Part shown: positions 8,440 to 18,340 of the stretch, one piece after another | Layout of the letters: each line of letters opens with the position of its first letter | Numbering within the stretch: the first letter of the stretch is position 1 | Assembly (NCBI GenBank): GCA_016209015.1 | Contig: JACQWY010000041.1 | Location: 1-33,450 of the forward strand | DNA: 33,450 nucleotides | Origin: Gammaproteobacteria bacterium | GTDB taxonomy: Bacteria > Pseudomonadota > Gammaproteobacteria > Ga0077536 | Direction of reading: 5' to 3' | Notes under the pieces: generated by a model | What the model saw: only the letters and a program-made list of their open reading frames with translations | Databases searched by the model: none | What the model was told of the DNA's origin: nothing | Made by a program: the position numbers and the translations under genes

Positions 8440-8615
8440 GCGGAAAAAAGCGTCTTTGCGGCGGCCTAAATGCTCAAAGCGGGGCGCCGGCCGTGCTTTG
8501 CGCGCGTGTTCGCAAACGAATAGACTGCGGTCCGGCGCCGGCCTTCTCGAACCCTGGCGGCACGCATCCTCGATGGACTCGGTTCAGACCCATTTCTACT
8601 CTGGCGGAACAAGCT

Positions 8616-10106
8616 ATGGAAATTTCGATCAAGCGGGGCACCCCGGCGAGCCAGAAGGCCGCCTGCATCGTGGTCGGCGTGCACACCGGGAAACATCTGA
8701 GTCCGAGCGCTGCGGCGCTCGACAAAACGATGCGGGGCGCCATCAGCCGCATCTTAAAGCGCGGCGACCTTAGCGGCAAATGCGGTGAGACCCTGCTGCT
8801 GCCCGAGGCCCCGGGCGCCGGCCCGGAGCGCGTGCTGCTCGTCGGCGCGGGTAAAGCGGGCGCACTCGACGCGTCCGATTTCATGTCGCTCGTGCAGAAG
8901 ACCGCCGCGGCGCTCGGCAGCGTGCACGGCAAGACCGCCGTCACGTGTCTCTCGGAGATCGAGGTCAAGGAGCGCGATCTCGACTGGCGCGTCCGTCAGG
9001 AAGTGCTCGCGCTGCACGCCGCTGCCTATCGCTTCGATCAGATGAAGTCGAAACCGAAGCCCGCGAAGGGTGCCTATGGCCGTATCGGTCTCCTCGTCGC
9101 CGAGAAGCACGCGCCGGCCGCGACCGAGGCGCTCGCGACGGCGAAAGCGCTCGTTGCCGGCCTCGAGCTGACGAAGACGCTCGCGAATCTGCCGGGCAAC
9201 CACTGCCCGCCCTCGCACCTCGCGGACGCGGCCGAAGAGATCGGCAAGGCCTACGAGGCCGTCGAGGTCACGGTGCTCGAGCAGGCGGACATGGAGAAGC
9301 TCGGCATGGGCTCGCTGCTGTCCGTCTCGCGCGGCAGCCGTCAGCCGCCGAAGCTCATCACGCTCGAATACGCGGGCGGCGCGGCCGATGCGGCGCCCGT
9401 CGTCCTCGTCGGCAAGGGCGTGACGTTCGATTCCGGCGGCATTTCGCTGAAACCCGGTGCGGCGATGGACGAGATGAAGTTCGACATGGCGGGCGCGGCG
9501 TCCGTGCTCGGCTGCATCAAGGCGTGTGCCGAGCTCGCGCTGCCCTTGAACGTCGTCGGCGTCATTCCGGCGACGGAGAACCTGCCCGACGGCAACGCGA
9601 CGAAGCCCGGCGACGTCGTGACCAGCATGTCGGGTCAGACGATCGAAATCCTGAACACCGACGCCGAGGGCCGGCTCATCCTCTGCGACGCGCTGACCTA
9701 CAGCAAGAAGTTCAATCCCGACGTCGTCATCGACATCGCGACACTCACCGGCGCCTGCGTCATCGCGCTCGGGAGTCACGCCAGCGGGCTGATGAGCAAC
9801 AACGACAAGCTCGCCGAGGACCTGCTCGAGGCCGGCACGCTCAGCGGCGATCGCGCCTGGCGGCTGCCGCTGTGGGAGGATTACCAGAAGCAGCTCGACA
9901 CGCCGTTCGCCGACATGGCGAACGTCGGCGGCCGCGAGGCCGGCACGATTACCGCGGCCTGCTTCCTGTGGCGGTTCACGAAGGACTATCGCTGGGCGCA
10001 TCTCGACATCGCGGGCACGGCCTGGAAGTCGAAGCCGAAGGGCGCGACCGGCCGGCCGCTGCCGCTGCTGATGGAATACCTGCTCGCGCGCGCCGCGAAG
10101 GCCTGA
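8616..10106 (+). CDS. pepA: Leucyl aminopeptidase (M17)
   Basis: This 496-residue protein is a cytosolic M17 metallo-aminopeptidase that removes N-terminal residues, and in relatives it also acts as a DNA-binding factor. Visible active-site elements are GKGVTFDSGG at 266-275 (Lys267, Asp272), Asp290 in the KFDMAGA segment, and the family signature NTDAEGRL at 347-354 (Asp349, Glu351, Arg353). The N-terminal 160 residues form the variable macro-like domain. I chose the ATG at 8616 because GGCGGAA lies upstream and it gives the usual family length. The open frame extends up to 8493. It is divergent from lptG and followed 14 bp later by holC. Confidence 0.95.
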   Translation: MEISIKRGTPASQKAACIVVGVHTGKHLSPSAAALDKTMRGAISRILKRGDLSGKCGETLLLPEAPGAGPERVLLVGAGKAGALDASDFMSLVQKTAAALGSVHGKTAVTCLSEIEVKERDLDWRVRQEVLALHAAAYRFDQMKSKPKPAKGAYGRIGLLVAEKHAPAATEALATAKALVAGLELTKTLANLPGNHCPPSHLADAAEEIGKAYEAVEVTVLEQADMEKLGMGSLLSVSRGSRQPPKLITLEYAGGAADAAPVVLVGKGVTFDSGGISLKPGAAMDEMKFDMAGAASVLGCIKACAELALPLNVVGVIPATENLPDGNATKPGDVVTSMSGQTIEILNTDAEGRLILCDALTYSKKFNPDVVIDIATLTGACVIALGSHASGLMSNNDKLAEDLLEAGTLSGDRAWRLPLWEDYQKQLDTPFADMANVGGREAGTITAACFLWRFTKDYRWAHLDIAGTAWKSKPKGATGRPLPLLMEYLLARAAKA

Positions 10107-15162: not shown

Positions 15163-15193
15163 CCCAATTCCCCAGAGCCCGCTTGCCACTGCC

Positions 15194-15363
15194 GTCATTC
15201 CCGCGCAGGCGGGAATCCAGTCGTCGAGCCCCGGCTTAGACGATCAGCCACGGGCCATACCTTGGACGTCAGTAACGAGGCCCGGGCCCAGCACTCTCGA
15301 ATACCGCGGTTCACTGAACTTACCGTAGGTCACCGACTGGATTCCCGCGTTCGCGGGAATGAC
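15194..15363. repeat. Hairpin-bounded 170-bp element (copy D, variant stem)
   Basis: The ends are GTCATTCCCGC and GCGGGAATGAC. Each arm is a perfect 8-bp hairpin: ATTCCCGC-GCAG-GCGGGAAT at 15197-15216 and ATTCCCGC-GTTC-GCGGGAAT at 15341-15360. The flanking CCAGTCGTC on the left and GGTTCACTG...GGTCACCGACTGG on the right match the other copies in this window, whose stems are GCCCTCGC/GCGAGGGC. No ORF is seen inside. Confidence 0.8.
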
Positions 15364-15640
15364 GTGGTGGGGCAGGCGGCGACGGTGCCGTGACGGCGCG
15401 CTCTCGGGGTCTTCAATCGTCAGCATCGTTCATCATGGCGGGCGAGGCTCGCGCTTCATGACCGTTGGAGACATGCCCGGTTTGTGAAAGCCGGACCGGC
15501 CACCGGCTGGATGGCCTGAAGCGCCGCCGCATACCCGGGCTCCCGCGTCTCCTATACGATTCGGAACCCGCACGGCTCACCACCGGGCGCGGGGCGGGCG
15601 CGGCCTGCCGCCATCATCGATACGACGCACGGAGGGGAGC
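15364..15640. other. Intergenic region upstream of the acyl-CoA dehydrogenase
   Basis: I see no convincing gene. A strong ribosome binding site (GGAGGGGAGC) immediately precedes the ATG at 15641. A TATACG-like hexamer at about 15553 could be a -10 element, but I cannot pair it with a good -35. Confidence 0.4.
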
Positions 15641-16912
15641 ATGGACTTCGATATTCCAGAGGACATCCGGCAACTGCTCGGACAGCTCGACGCTTTCATC
15701 GAGACGACGATCAAACCCCTGGAGCGGGAGAACGACAACGCCCGCTTCTTCGACCACCGCCGCGAGCACGCGCGTACCGACTGGGATCGCGACGGCCTGC
15801 CGAACGAGGAGTGGGAGGCTCTGTTGCACAAAGCGAAGCGTCTCGCCGACGAAGCCGGCTTCTACCGCTATCCGGTTCCGAAAGCCCACGGCGGCATGGG
15901 CGGAACGAATCTCGGCATGGCGATCATCCGCGAACACCTGACGGCGAAGGGCCTGGGACTGCACAATGATCTGCAGAACGAGCACTCGATCGTCGGCAAC
16001 AACGTGGGGCTCCTGCTCATGCTGCGCTACGGCAGCGATGCGCAGAAGCAGGCCTGGATCGACGACCTCGCGGAGGACCGTCGAAGTTTCGCCTACGGCA
16101 TCACCGAGCCGAAGCACGGTTCGGACGCCACACACATGGAAACGGTGGCCGTACGCGGGGGCGACACCTGGGTCATCAACGGCGAGAAGACCTGGAACAC
16201 CGGCGTGCACAAGGCGCATTCCGACATGGTCATGGCCCGGACGCACGGCAAGGCGGGCGACGCGGACGGCATCACCGCCTTCCTCGTCCCCATGGACACG
16301 CCGGGCGTGAAGATCGAGGAGTTCCTGTGGACGTTCAACATGCCGACCGACCACGCGCGCGTCTCGTTCACGAACGTGCGCGTGCCCGATTCGGCGATCT
16401 TCGGCGGTGCGGGGCGGGGCCTGCAGGTCGTGCAGCACTTCTTCAACGAGAACCGGATCCGCCAGGCGGCGTCGAGTCTCGGGGCGGCGCAGTACTGCGT
16501 GAACGAGTCGGTGAAATACGCCATGGAGCGCAAGCCCTTCGGCAAAGCGCTGTCGAGCAATCAAGGCATCCAGTTTCCGCTCGTGGAGCTCCAGACGCAG
16601 TGCGAGATGCTGCGCGCGCTGATCCACAAGACTGCCTGGCTCATGGATCGCGACGGCGCGTTCTCGGTCTCCGACAAGGTCTCGATGTGCAATTTCTGGA
16701 GCAACCGCCTGTGTTGCGAAGCCGCCGATCGCGCCATGCAGATCCACGGCGGTCTCGGCTACTCGCGCTACAAACCGTTCGAGCATATTTATCGTCACCA
16801 CCGGCGTTACCGCATCACCGAAGGCGCCGAGGAGATCCAGATGCGCCGCGTGGCGGGTTACCTGTTCGGCTACATGACGCAGCGCGCCCCGAAGGGCGTA
16901 GCCGAGGATTGA
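15641..16912 (+). CDS. Acyl-CoA dehydrogenase (LvaC/ACAD11-like)
   Basis: The 423-residue flavoprotein has the ACAD fold: a helical N-terminal domain (1-145), a beta domain with AYGITEPKHGSDATHMET at 151-168 and WVINGEKTWNTG, and a C-terminal helical domain with AMQIHGGLGYSR and the catalytic-base region RITEGAEEIQ (Glu394). It is fed by a strong Shine-Dalgarno sequence. Six bases after its stop comes an APH-fold kinase gene. In the levulinate pathway (LvaA/B kinase with LvaC) and in animal ACAD10/11, such pairs phosphorylate a 4-hydroxyacyl-CoA and eliminate phosphate to give an enoyl-CoA. That role here is inferred from the pairing. A plain fatty acyl-CoA dehydrogenase is the alternative. 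Confidence 0.88.
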   Translation: MDFDIPEDIRQLLGQLDAFIETTIKPLERENDNARFFDHRREHARTDWDRDGLPNEEWEALLHKAKRLADEAGFYRYPVPKAHGGMGGTNLGMAIIREHLTAKGLGLHNDLQNEHSIVGNNVGLLLMLRYGSDAQKQAWIDDLAEDRRSFAYGITEPKHGSDATHMETVAVRGGDTWVINGEKTWNTGVHKAHSDMVMARTHGKAGDADGITAFLVPMDTPGVKIEEFLWTFNMPTDHARVSFTNVRVPDSAIFGGAGRGLQVVQHFFNENRIRQAASSLGAAQYCVNESVKYAMERKPFGKALSSNQGIQFPLVELQTQCEMLRALIHKTAWLMDRDGAFSVSDKVSMCNFWSNRLCCEAADRAMQIHGGLGYSRYKPFEHIYRHHRRYRITEGAEEIQMRRVAGYLFGYMTQRAPKGVAED

Positions 16913-16918
16913 GGCCGC

Positions 16919-18340
16919 ATGGCACGCAGCGAATTCGAGGAACGGCTGGCTAGCCTGGTACGGCGTCGGGTTCCGGGCTGTGAGGCTCTGATCGCCGCCG
17001 AGCGGCTCTCGGGCGGCGCGAACCAGGAGACCTACCGCATCACGGTGCGGGGCGGGGACGGTCCGCGCCGGCTCTGCCTGCGCCGCGCGGCCGGGGGCGT
17101 TGGCCGACACGAACATGGTCAGCCGGGACTCGCCACCGAAGCCCGGCTCATGCAGGTCGCGCGCGACGCGGGCGTGCCGGAGCCCGAAGTGCTGCACGTG
17201 CTCGGGCCGGATGACGGGCTCGGCGAGGGTTTCCTCATGGAGTGGCTCGACGGCGAGACGCTCGGCGCGAAGATCGTGCGCGCTCCGGAATTTGCCGCCG
17301 TCCGGCCGCGGCTCGCGCGGGAGTGCGGCGAGGTCCTGGCCCGTATTCACGCGATCGACGTCGACGCCACCGGTTTGCGGGATCGCCTCGAGACGCTCAG
17401 CCCCGAGCAGTTCGTGCGCCGCATGTGGCTGCAGTACCAGGGCTACGCCACACCGCAGCCGATGATCGACTACACGGCCCGCTGGCTGCTCGCGCACCTG
17501 CCCGAGCCGTCGTGCCCTGCGCTCGTCCACAACGACTTCCGCAACGGCAACCTGATGATCGACGCGGGGGGTATCCGTGCCGTCCTCGATTGGGAGATTG
17601 CGCATCTCGGCGACCCGATGCGCGACCTGGGCTGGATCTGCACGAACTCGTGGCGCTTCGGTGTGAGCGACAAACCGGTCGGCGGCTTCGGCGGGTACGC
17701 GGATCTCTGCGCCGGCTACGAGGCGGTCTCGGGACGGGCGGTGAACCGCGAGCACCTGAAATTCTGGGAAGTGTTCGGGTCGTTCTGGTGGGCGATCGAA
17801 TGTCTGGGGATGGCGGACCACTACCGGCACGGTCCCGACCAGACGGTCGAGCGGCCCGGCATCGCGCGGCGCAGCTCGGAATGCCAGATCGACTGCGTGA
17901 ACCTGCTGATGCCGGGCCCGGTGGAAATGCTCGCCGCGCCCGGATTCGACGACGACGAGATGCCGAGGCTGGACGAGCTGCTGTCCTCGGTGCGGGATTT
18001 CCTGCACCAGGACGTGATGGCGGAAACGACGGGCCGGACGAGCTTCCTCGCCCGCGTCGCCGGCAACAGCCTCGACATCGTGCTCCGCGATCTGGCGCTC
18101 GGCAGCCGCCATCGTGATGCCGAGCTCAGACGGATGCGCGCGCTGCTCGGGACGGACGGCACGCTGCCGGAGCTGCGTTGGAAGCTCGCGCTCGCGTTGC
18201 GCGCGGGCTCGATCGCGCTCGATACCCCGGCCCTGCAGGCGCACCTGCGGACTACGGTCGCGAACCAGCTCGCCATCGACCAGCCGAAATACTCCGGCTT
18301 GCGCACGGCACTCGCCGGCGGCGGACGACGACCCGACTGA
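16919..18340 (+). CDS. APH-fold kinase with C-terminal LvaB-like (DUF6285) region
   Basis: The 473-residue protein starts with an aminoglycoside-phosphotransferase-type kinase (about 1-335): a nucleotide-binding RLSGGANQETYR segment at 29-40, the catalytic loop HNDFRNGN at 204-211 (Asp206, Asn211), and the metal-binding LDWE at 223-226 (Asp224). Residues about 345-460 are an extra helical region (LDELLSSVRDFLHQDVM, then SFLARVAGNSLDIVLRDL) that resembles the small LvaB/DUF6285 proteins. In Pseudomonas LvaA needs LvaB to phosphorylate 4-hydroxyvaleryl-CoA, and here both seem joined in one chain. With the dehydrogenase just upstream I infer a 4-hydroxyacyl-CoA kinase rather than an antibiotic-resistance enzyme. 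The start at 16919 is 6 bp after the upstream stop. Confidence 0.82.
   Translation: MARSEFEERLASLVRRRVPGCEALIAAERLSGGANQETYRITVRGGDGPRRLCLRRAAGGVGRHEHGQPGLATEARLMQVARDAGVPEPEVLHVLGPDDGLGEGFLMEWLDGETLGAKIVRAPEFAAVRPRLARECGEVLARIHAIDVDATGLRDRLETLSPEQFVRRMWLQYQGYATPQPMIDYTARWLLAHLPEPSCPALVHNDFRNGNLMIDAGGIRAVLDWEIAHLGDPMRDLGWICTNSWRFGVSDKPVGGFGGYADLCAGYEAVSGRAVNREHLKFWEVFGSFWWAIECLGMADHYRHGPDQTVERPGIARRSSECQIDCVNLLMPGPVEMLAAPGFDDDEMPRLDELLSSVRDFLHQDVMAETTGRTSFLARVAGNSLDIVLRDLALGSRHRDAELRRMRALLGTDGTLPELRWKLALALRAGSIALDTPALQAHLRTTVANQLAIDQPKYSGLRTALAGGGRRPD

What the first reader, a model, noticed from the sequence alone, without database searches (positions are those of the whole stretch)
16919..18340. 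Apparent LvaA-LvaB fusion beside an LvaC-like acyl-CoA dehydrogenase
An APH-fold kinase carries an extra C-terminal helical region like the small LvaB/DUF6285 partner, and an acyl-CoA dehydrogenase ends 6 bp upstream. In the levulinate pathway of Pseudomonas, LvaA with LvaB phosphorylates 4-hydroxyacyl-CoA and LvaC eliminates the phosphate. A fused two-gene version, with no other catabolic genes nearby, may be a compact, stand-alone 4-hydroxy-acid detoxification or salvage module.
Basis: partly seen in the sequence, partly recalled or inferred. Interest (0 to 1): 0.65.

Follow-up and report, generated by a model that had tools for sequence, protein, structure and literature searches.

The report
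Fused acyl-CoA kinase with non-LvaC dehydrogenase
Two neighbouring genes encode a kinase fused to its helper domain and a dedicated dehydrogenase; the pair resembles the known levulinate/4-hydroxy-acid pathway, but the dehydrogenase lacks the residues which that pathway needs, so its chemistry is an open and testable question.

Summary
The fusion is real: window 16919-18340 is an APH-fold kinase (PF01636, E 1.5e-38) followed by DUF6285 (PF19802, E 5.4e-28), the LvaB-type domain by operon position. The acyl-CoA dehydrogenase (ACAD) 6 bp upstream is not LvaC-like: it has Phe, Gln, Ser and Glu where LvaC/ACAD11 need Arg, His, Arg and Asp. Six LvaC-type ACADs elsewhere in the genome keep them.

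Comparison showed more. DUF6285 kinases fall into two lineages with different ACAD partners; the window's lineage pairs with a distinct Glu-type clade ("E*"). Among 397 genomes of the phylum E* occurs in 31, all with a DUF6285 kinase; the 11 DUF6285 genomes without E* have only kinases of the LvaC lineage. The association recurs in Actinomycetota and Myxococcota in several gene orders. Fusion or fission happened at least five times, so fusion itself is not rare. Substrate and E* chemistry are unknown; every E* genome in the sample also has an LvaC-type ACAD. A new variant of a known kind.

The parts
15641..16912 (+). Acyl-CoA dehydrogenase of the E* clade (423 aa, Glu base)
   Evidence: Pfam ACAD N/M/C domains; 71-77% identical matches in 13 of 39 other genomes searched; residue class FRQSE
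15631..15639 (+). Purine-rich ribosome-binding-site-like stretch before the ACAD ATG
   Evidence: read directly from the sequence; inference
16439..16474 (+). ACAD residues 267-278: the stretch where LvaC/ACAD11 carry Arg626, Arg631, His634 and Arg637; here Phe, Arg, Gln, Ser
16820..16822 (+). ACAD catalytic base Glu394 (Asp753 in ACAD11)
16919..18340 (+). Fused APH-fold kinase plus DUF6285, 473 aa
17000..17728 (+). APH kinase domain, residues 28-270
   Evidence: PF01636 E 1.5e-38
17528..17551 (+). Kinase catalytic loop, residues 204-211 (His204, Asp206, Asn211)
   Evidence: invariant in 36 fused sequences; over 90% conserved in both kinase lineages
18023..18292 (+). DUF6285 (LvaB-type) domain, residues 369-458
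   Evidence: PF19802 E 5.4e-28; genome search hit at the same place

Best explanation
The two genes form an operon for handling hydroxylated acyl-CoAs. The fused protein is an active LvaAB-type kinase: the APH domain phosphorylates a hydroxyl (most likely the gamma-OH) of an acyl-CoA, and the attached five-helix DUF6285 domain, normally the separate LvaB-type subunit, supports that step. The partner ACAD is not the phosphate-eliminating LvaC. It is a conventional Glu-base, FAD-dependent dehydrogenase of its own clade (E*), which oxidises the alpha-beta bond of the same acyl chain before or after phosphorylation and passes electrons to ETF. The phosphate is expelled by one of the LvaC-type ACADs encoded elsewhere in the same genome. 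Shown here: domain make-up, kinase catalytic residues, absence of the LvaC residues in E*, and the close pairing of E* with this kinase lineage. Inferred: the substrate, the order of steps, electron transfer to ETF, and the use of an unlinked LvaC.
For: Fusion and intact kinase residues. ACAD residue class FRQSE in the window and in 29 of 29 genomes re-searched with it; ACADs fetched by similarity to an LvaC-type one read RRHRD in 29 of 29 family loci and in 29 of 29 E* genomes. E* occurs in 31 of 397 genomes, all of them with a DUF6285 kinase; 11 DUF6285 genomes lack E*, and all 11 have kinases of the LvaC lineage. Adjacency in several gene orders across phyla: 54 of 80 titled E* loci have kinase and DUF6285 close by. 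31 of 31 E* genomes carry an LvaC-type ACAD against 117 of the other 366, 8 of 42 DUF6285 survey loci hold both types within 14 kb, and 3 of 80 E* loci have an LvaC-type ACAD in the locus. Non-fused E* loci are rich in enoyl-CoA hydratase (19 of 35), CoA ligase (14 of 35) and SDR (11 of 35) genes. One fused locus has ETF alpha two genes upstream of the kinase (L265). LvaAB/LvaC chemistry: PMC6692424 and PMC11342911 (passages), PMC12440821 (passages, sections 7 and 10).
Against: No substrate evidence of any kind. Co-occurrence with LvaC-type ACADs may only reflect large lipid-degrading genomes. 23 of 80 E* loci have neither kinase nor DUF6285 within about 3 kb (6 of these with little flanking sequence), and 3 have the kinase only; the 3 loci with E* beside an LvaC-type ACAD have no kinase or DUF6285 there. 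In the window's own family two genomes have the fused kinase but no E* match (G007; G019, 71% complete) and one has E* without a kinase match at the cut-off (G021). ETF alpha was found near the pair in only 1 of 45 fused loci.
Confidence: 0.4

Rival explanations
1. One reading: E* does LvaC's job, so the two genes are a complete compact 4-hydroxyacyl-CoA module (phosphorylate, then redox-neutral phosphate elimination).
For: Position beside a DUF6285 kinase, where an LvaC-type ACAD stands in lva-type clusters; close pairing with the kinase.
Against: Arg626, His634, Arg637 and Asp753 of ACAD11 are replaced by Phe, Gln, Ser/Ala/Gly and Glu in 112 of 112 E* ACADs (the class is defined by Phe/Arg/Gln/Glu, so this shows consistency only); non-conservative replacement of these Arg/His residues disrupted ACAD10/11 activity most (PMC12440821 section 7). 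Two fused kinases of this family stand next to a true LvaC-type ACAD instead (L073, L075).
Confidence: 0.12
2. E* and the kinase make a self-sufficient route with different chemistry: E* oxidises the 4-phosphoacyl-CoA to a 4-phospho-2-enoyl-CoA (net two-electron oxidation to ETF), from which phosphate leaves by elimination to give a dienoyl-CoA for beta-oxidation; no LvaC is used.
For: Glu base and no phosphate clamp suggest net dehydrogenation; close pairing and operon structure.
Against: Every E* genome of the sample also has LvaC-type ACADs, so independence from LvaC cannot be seen in the genomes; no search for dienoyl-CoA reductase was made; the chemistry is my inference.
Confidence: 0.2
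3. The kinase acts on another hydroxyl: a tertiary or side-chain alcohol of a steroid-, terpenoid- or branched-chain-like acid, as 25-hydroxy steroid kinase does; E* is the matching beta-oxidation dehydrogenase.
For: The nearest solved structures after 3dxp are 25-hydroxy steroid kinase (Foldseek E 1.2e-11), where phosphorylation serves ATP-dependent dehydration of a tertiary alcohol (PMC8449060, start of abstract in the listing and passages). Sulfitobacter has two further ACADs without Glu or Asp at the catalytic column near the E* cluster (L056).
Against: Many APH-superfamily structures score close behind; the passages of PMC8449060 that I read name no DUF6285 or ACAD partner; the Pfam names in the window flanks suggest no steroid genes.
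Confidence: 0.2
4. The kinase is an antibiotic (aminoglycoside or macrolide) phosphotransferase and its place beside the ACAD is incidental.
For: APH fold; weak NCBIfam matches to APH and Mph models far below their cut-offs.
Against: The resistance models listed are far under cut-off (for example 19.9 against 205 bits for APH(3')); DUF6285 fusion and conserved ACAD pairing.
Confidence: 0.02

Closest known systems
LvaA-LvaB of the Pseudomonas putida levulinate (lva) operon
   Same: APH-fold kinase with an LvaB-type (DUF6285) partner; stands beside an ACAD gene; kinase catalytic residues intact
   Different: Kinase and DUF6285 fused; the kinase lies outside the clade that holds most kinases next to LvaC-type ACADs (LvaA itself was not in the tree); no SDR, CoA synthetase, regulator or transporter of the lva kind beside it
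LvaC and the ACAD domains of mammalian ACAD10/ACAD11
   Same: ACAD superfamily, genomic or covalent link to an APH-fold kinase
   Different: Window ACAD has Glu instead of catalytic Asp and lacks Arg626, His634 and Arg637; 28-31% identity to LvaC-type ACADs of the same genome
Conventional acyl-CoA dehydrogenases (MCAD, SCAD, butyryl-CoA dehydrogenase)
   Same: Glu base; best solved-structure matches are of this kind
   Different: A separate clade tied to the DUF6285 kinases; no NCBIfam model reaches its cut-off
25-hydroxy steroid kinase (9ft5, 9fsg)
   Same: APH-fold metabolic kinase whose phosphorylation serves removal of a hydroxyl
   Different: No DUF6285 or ACAD partner named in the passages read; 20-22% identity in the fold alignment

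Membership tests
APH phosphotransferase family (PF01636) | Pfam profile above gathering score | tested here: met
   133.3 bits against 23.2
APH phosphotransferase family (PF01636) | Catalytic loop HxDxxxxN and following Asp (motif recalled) | tested here: met
   H204, D206, N211, D224 invariant in 36 fused sequences
DUF6285 / LvaB | Pfam DUF6285 profile above gathering score | tested here: met
   97.9 bits against 28.1
DUF6285 / LvaB | LvaB itself is DUF6285 | tested here: inconclusive
   By position only: in a Stutzerimonas plasmid operon laid out like lva, DUF6285 follows the kinase.
DUF6285 / LvaB | Needed for kinase activity | not testable with these tools
   Known for LvaB only (lvaB mutant does not grow on levulinate; PMC6692424 passages)
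LvaC / ACAD10-11 type ACAD | Catalytic Asp (D753) | tested here: not met
   Glu394
LvaC / ACAD10-11 type ACAD | R626, H634, R637 phosphate site | tested here: not met
   Phe, Gln, Ser
[quoted passage not shown]
   needs purified enzyme
lva operon | Neighbouring SDR (LvaD), CoA synthetase (LvaE) and regulator (LvaR) | tested here: not met
   Flanks scanned hold valyl-tRNA synthetase, LptF/G, an MDR dehydrogenase, Rrf2 and SUF genes
Acyl-CoA dehydrogenase superfamily | N, middle and C domains | tested here: met
   PF02771, PF02770, PF00441 above gathering score

The most novel reading that the evidence does not exclude
The E* dehydrogenase and the DUF6285 kinase are a second, LvaC-independent way to remove a hydroxyl from an acyl-CoA: phosphorylation followed by net oxidation and elimination with transfer of electrons to ETF, a chemistry that I do not know to be described for the ACAD family, kept as a near-obligate pair across Pseudomonadota, Actinomycetota and Myxococcota and perhaps haloarchaea.
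Probability: 0.2. Interest if true: 0.72.

Novelty: new variant of a known kind. Interest (0 to 1): 0.5.

Why it matters
4-Hydroxy-acid breakdown by phosphorylation was worked out only recently (lva operon; ACAD10/11). Here a whole lineage of the same kinases goes, genome by genome, with an ACAD that lacks the residues which the known mechanism needs. Either a different reaction exists or the known pathway has an additional oxidative step. Both are directly testable with two purified proteins. It also guards against a likely annotation error: an ACAD beside a DUF6285 kinase need not be LvaC, and five alignment columns tell the two apart.

Tried and rejected
Tried and rejected. (1) LvaC-like ACAD: rejected by residues. 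(2) Fusion as a rare or new architecture: rejected; fused forms occur in both kinase lineages, with at least 5 changes forced by well-supported branches, and in 10 of the 42 survey loci fetched. (3) Antibiotic resistance kinase: rejected. (4) A conserved catabolic neighbour that would reveal the substrate: all-against-all comparison of ORFs and a scan with single representatives of chosen families gave only general lipid genes, SDR in 20 of 45 and CoA ligase in 12 of 45 fused loci. (5) Known fold for DUF6285: five helices, pLDDT 93.8, no PDB match with E below 0.001, best 0.73; helical bundles are often missed, so this is weak. (6) Haloarchaeal small protein as DUF6285: no Pfam DUF6285 match, profile comparison probability 21.8%, E 0.00098 from only 3 sequences: undecided. 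(7) Print: no paper in the held library contains the word DUF6285; the listings of searches for ACAD11, LvaA/LvaB, aminoglycoside phosphotransferase plus ACAD, and phosphoacyl-CoA terms show no title or abstract start about a Glu-type ACAD partner; this does not cover subscription journals, and Rand et al. 2017 itself was not held. Alignment A1 wrongly included a kinase stretch (L075) as an ACAD row; it was dropped and A2 rebuilt without it. One row of A4 (L154) carries extra residues after the domain.

Full report
What is there. The window holds two genes on the + strand: an ACAD at 15641-16912 and, 6 bp downstream, a 473-aa protein at 16919-18340. The second is an APH-fold kinase (PF01636, residues 28-270, E 1.5e-38) followed by DUF6285 (PF19802, residues 369-458, E 5.4e-28). 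AlphaFold2 on an alignment of 36 fused sequences gives pLDDT 93.1 and pTM 0.91, with the kinase followed by five C-terminal helices. The kinase residues H204, D206, N211 and D224 are invariant in those 36. The flanks are mostly housekeeping: LptF/G, valyl-tRNA synthetase and a divergent MDR dehydrogenase on one side; an Rrf2 regulator, a SufBD-core protein, an Fe-S assembly protein, NDK, RlmN and histidyl-tRNA synthetase on the other.

Is DUF6285 LvaB? LvaB is a 12-kDa protein that binds LvaA, and an lvaB mutant does not grow on levulinate (PMC6692424, passages). On a Stutzerimonas plasmid the order regulator, phosphotransferase, DUF6285, histidine phosphatase, ACAD, SDR, acyl-CoA synthetase, DUF485, symporter resembles the lva operon, with DUF6285 in the LvaB place and an ACAD of class RRHRD. 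I could not align LvaB itself, so this rests on position; the lva gene functions beyond A-E are recalled.

The ACAD is not LvaC-like. In ACAD11 the phosphate is held by R626, H634 and R637 and the base is D753; these are shared with LvaC and not found in conventional ACADs, and non-conservative replacement disrupts activity (PMC12440821 section 7). At these four columns the window has Phe, Gln, Ser and Glu, and it keeps the general Arg631: class FRQSE, called E* here. LvaC-type ACADs read RRHRD, including those of the Thermus and Stutzerimonas clusters and six in the window's own genome (C26, C28, C29, C46, C55, C56). The two classes are clearly apart: among 162 ACAD domain matches in the loci used, 112 ORFs are E* (109 FRQSE, 2 FRQAE, 1 FRQGE) and 29 are RRHRD. 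Most E* rows were fetched with an E* query, so these counts are not frequencies.

A second kinase lineage with its own ACAD. I surveyed 397 genomes of the window's phylum (own genome included; Pseudomonadota, inferred from the nearest titled relatives). DUF6285 was found in 41, E* in 31 (E 1e-80 or better) and LvaC-type ACADs in 148 (E 1e-60 or better to L010). Only the first-look candidates that rank highest in each genome are scored (4 or 5), so some absences could be misses. Of the 31 E* genomes 30 have a DUF6285 call; the last, G312, has a fused kinase-DUF6285, missed by Pfam's model, directly beside E* (it is not on the tree). The 11 DUF6285 genomes without E* (G046, G054, G083, G107, G174, G201, G292, G326, G365, G398, G418) all have kinases in one clade of the kinase tree (14 rows, 11 of them within 1.7 kb of an LvaC-type ACAD; support 85/69, and 100/99 for the 13 rows without Thermus). 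Of these 11, 10 have an LvaC-type ACAD; G292 has none at that cut-off. The kinase of G175 lies outside both clades, yet G175 has E*. The window's own genome has kinases of both lineages (L034 is of the LvaC lineage). Counting any Pfam-called DUF6285 against E*, Fisher p is 8e-35; genomes are not independent, but E* spans nine families in this sample (f1, f19, f55, f61, f62, f65, f74, f83, f91). In 10 of the 29 E* genomes re-searched, E* is not in the stretch around the kinase and is still present exactly once at the cut-off.

On the tree of 117 kinases, 96 bear a neighbour label (83 E*, 13 LvaC); the label needs 2 changes against 12.4 for shuffles. The second change is the pair L073/L075 in the window's own family, where a fused kinase stands beside an LvaC-type ACAD and E* is on another contig. 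Fused (56 rows) against separate (58) needs 6 changes, at least 5 forced by well-supported branches: fusion or fission recurred.

Neighbourhoods. Of 42 survey loci fetched around DUF6285, 19 have E* within about 7 kb (8 of these also LvaC-type), 9 have LvaC-type only and 14 have neither. Loci with kinase and DUF6285 include Pseudomonadales, Myxococcales, Burkholderiaceae, Sphingomonadaceae, Ilumatobacteraceae, Nocardia, Mycobacterium and Frankiaceae. Non-fused E* loci are rich in enoyl-CoA hydratase (19 of 35), CoA ligase (14) and SDR (11); fused ones in SDR (20 of 45) and CoA ligase (12). In genomes of family f65 (Bradyrhizobium-like by my guess; no call names them) one cluster holds LvaC-type ACAD, E*, kinase, DUF6285, hydratases, SDRs and a CoA ligase. 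Haloarchaeal plasmids carry E* (58-60% identity) next to a kinase and a 157-159-aa protein of uncertain kinship.

Exceptions in the window's family (40 genomes, 25 of them of the family): both genes in 13 (own included); fused kinase without E* in G007 and G019; E* without a kinase match at the cut-off in G021; G016 and G022 have only a 40%-identical kinase and no E*. In G015 the kinase reading frame is broken while E* is whole.

How it most likely works. The kinase should phosphorylate a hydroxyacyl-CoA as LvaAB does. E* has the ordinary Glu base and no known phosphate site, so ordinary dehydrogenation is the economical reading. Phosphate removal could then fall to unlinked LvaC-type ACADs, present in 31 of 31 E* genomes against 117 of 366 others (p 6e-15; class checked by residues in 29 of the 31 and in the own genome, G312 by similarity only). 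That fits a shared pathway, but a lipid-degrading lifestyle alone could explain it. The alternative, that E* carries out a new net-oxidative elimination, is not excluded. By fold the nearest solved structures after 3dxp are 25-hydroxy steroid kinase, another APH-fold kinase that primes a hydroxyl for removal, so a different hydroxyl is possible.

Verdict. Fusion confirmed and common; LvaC claim refuted by residues; the close pairing of one DUF6285-kinase lineage with a distinct Glu-type ACAD clade is the real finding, and I saw no sign of it in the listings. Function remains to be assayed.

Noticed in passing
L034 (own genome C46:1-9784): Unfused LvaC-type ACAD, kinase and DUF6285, followed by an AMP-binding enzyme and a hydantoinase B/oxoprolinase-like gene: an LvaC-lineage DUF6285 cluster in the same genome.
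   Followed up: partly
L033 6325-7894 (own genome C44): A third kinase plus DUF6285 pair, next to a DUF7064/DUF7065 gene, with neither E* nor LvaC-type ACAD in the 15 kb fetched; its kinase forms a small separate branch with L082.
   Followed up: no
L083, L085, L086 (haloarchaeal plasmids): E* ACAD beside a kinase and a 157-159-aa protein without a convincing Pfam family, in two of three near hydantoinase/oxoprolinase genes; the small protein may be a remote LvaB-like subunit.
   Followed up: partly
L054 9291-9944 and L273 7355-8116: A histidine-phosphatase-family gene directly follows DUF6285 in the Thermus and Stutzerimonas LvaC-type clusters; P. citronellolis was reported to have such a gene beside its lvaA homologue.
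   Followed up: no
window 15193-15364: A 42-nt inverted repeat with an 88-nt gap upstream of the ACAD gene, perhaps a REP-type intergenic element.
   Followed up: no
L081 (G015) about 8475-9750: The kinase-DUF6285 gene is broken into pieces in this relative while the adjacent E* ACAD is intact: decay or assembly error.
   Followed up: no
phylum sample: LvaC-type ACADs (by similarity) occur in 148 of 397 genomes, far more often than DUF6285 (41 of 397), so many probably work with kinases that have no LvaB-type partner.
   Followed up: partly
PDB 3dxp: The chain is named 'putative acyl-CoA dehydrogenase' in the sequence file while the structure title says aminoglycoside phosphotransferase; perhaps a naming carry-over from kinase-ACAD fusions.
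   Followed up: no
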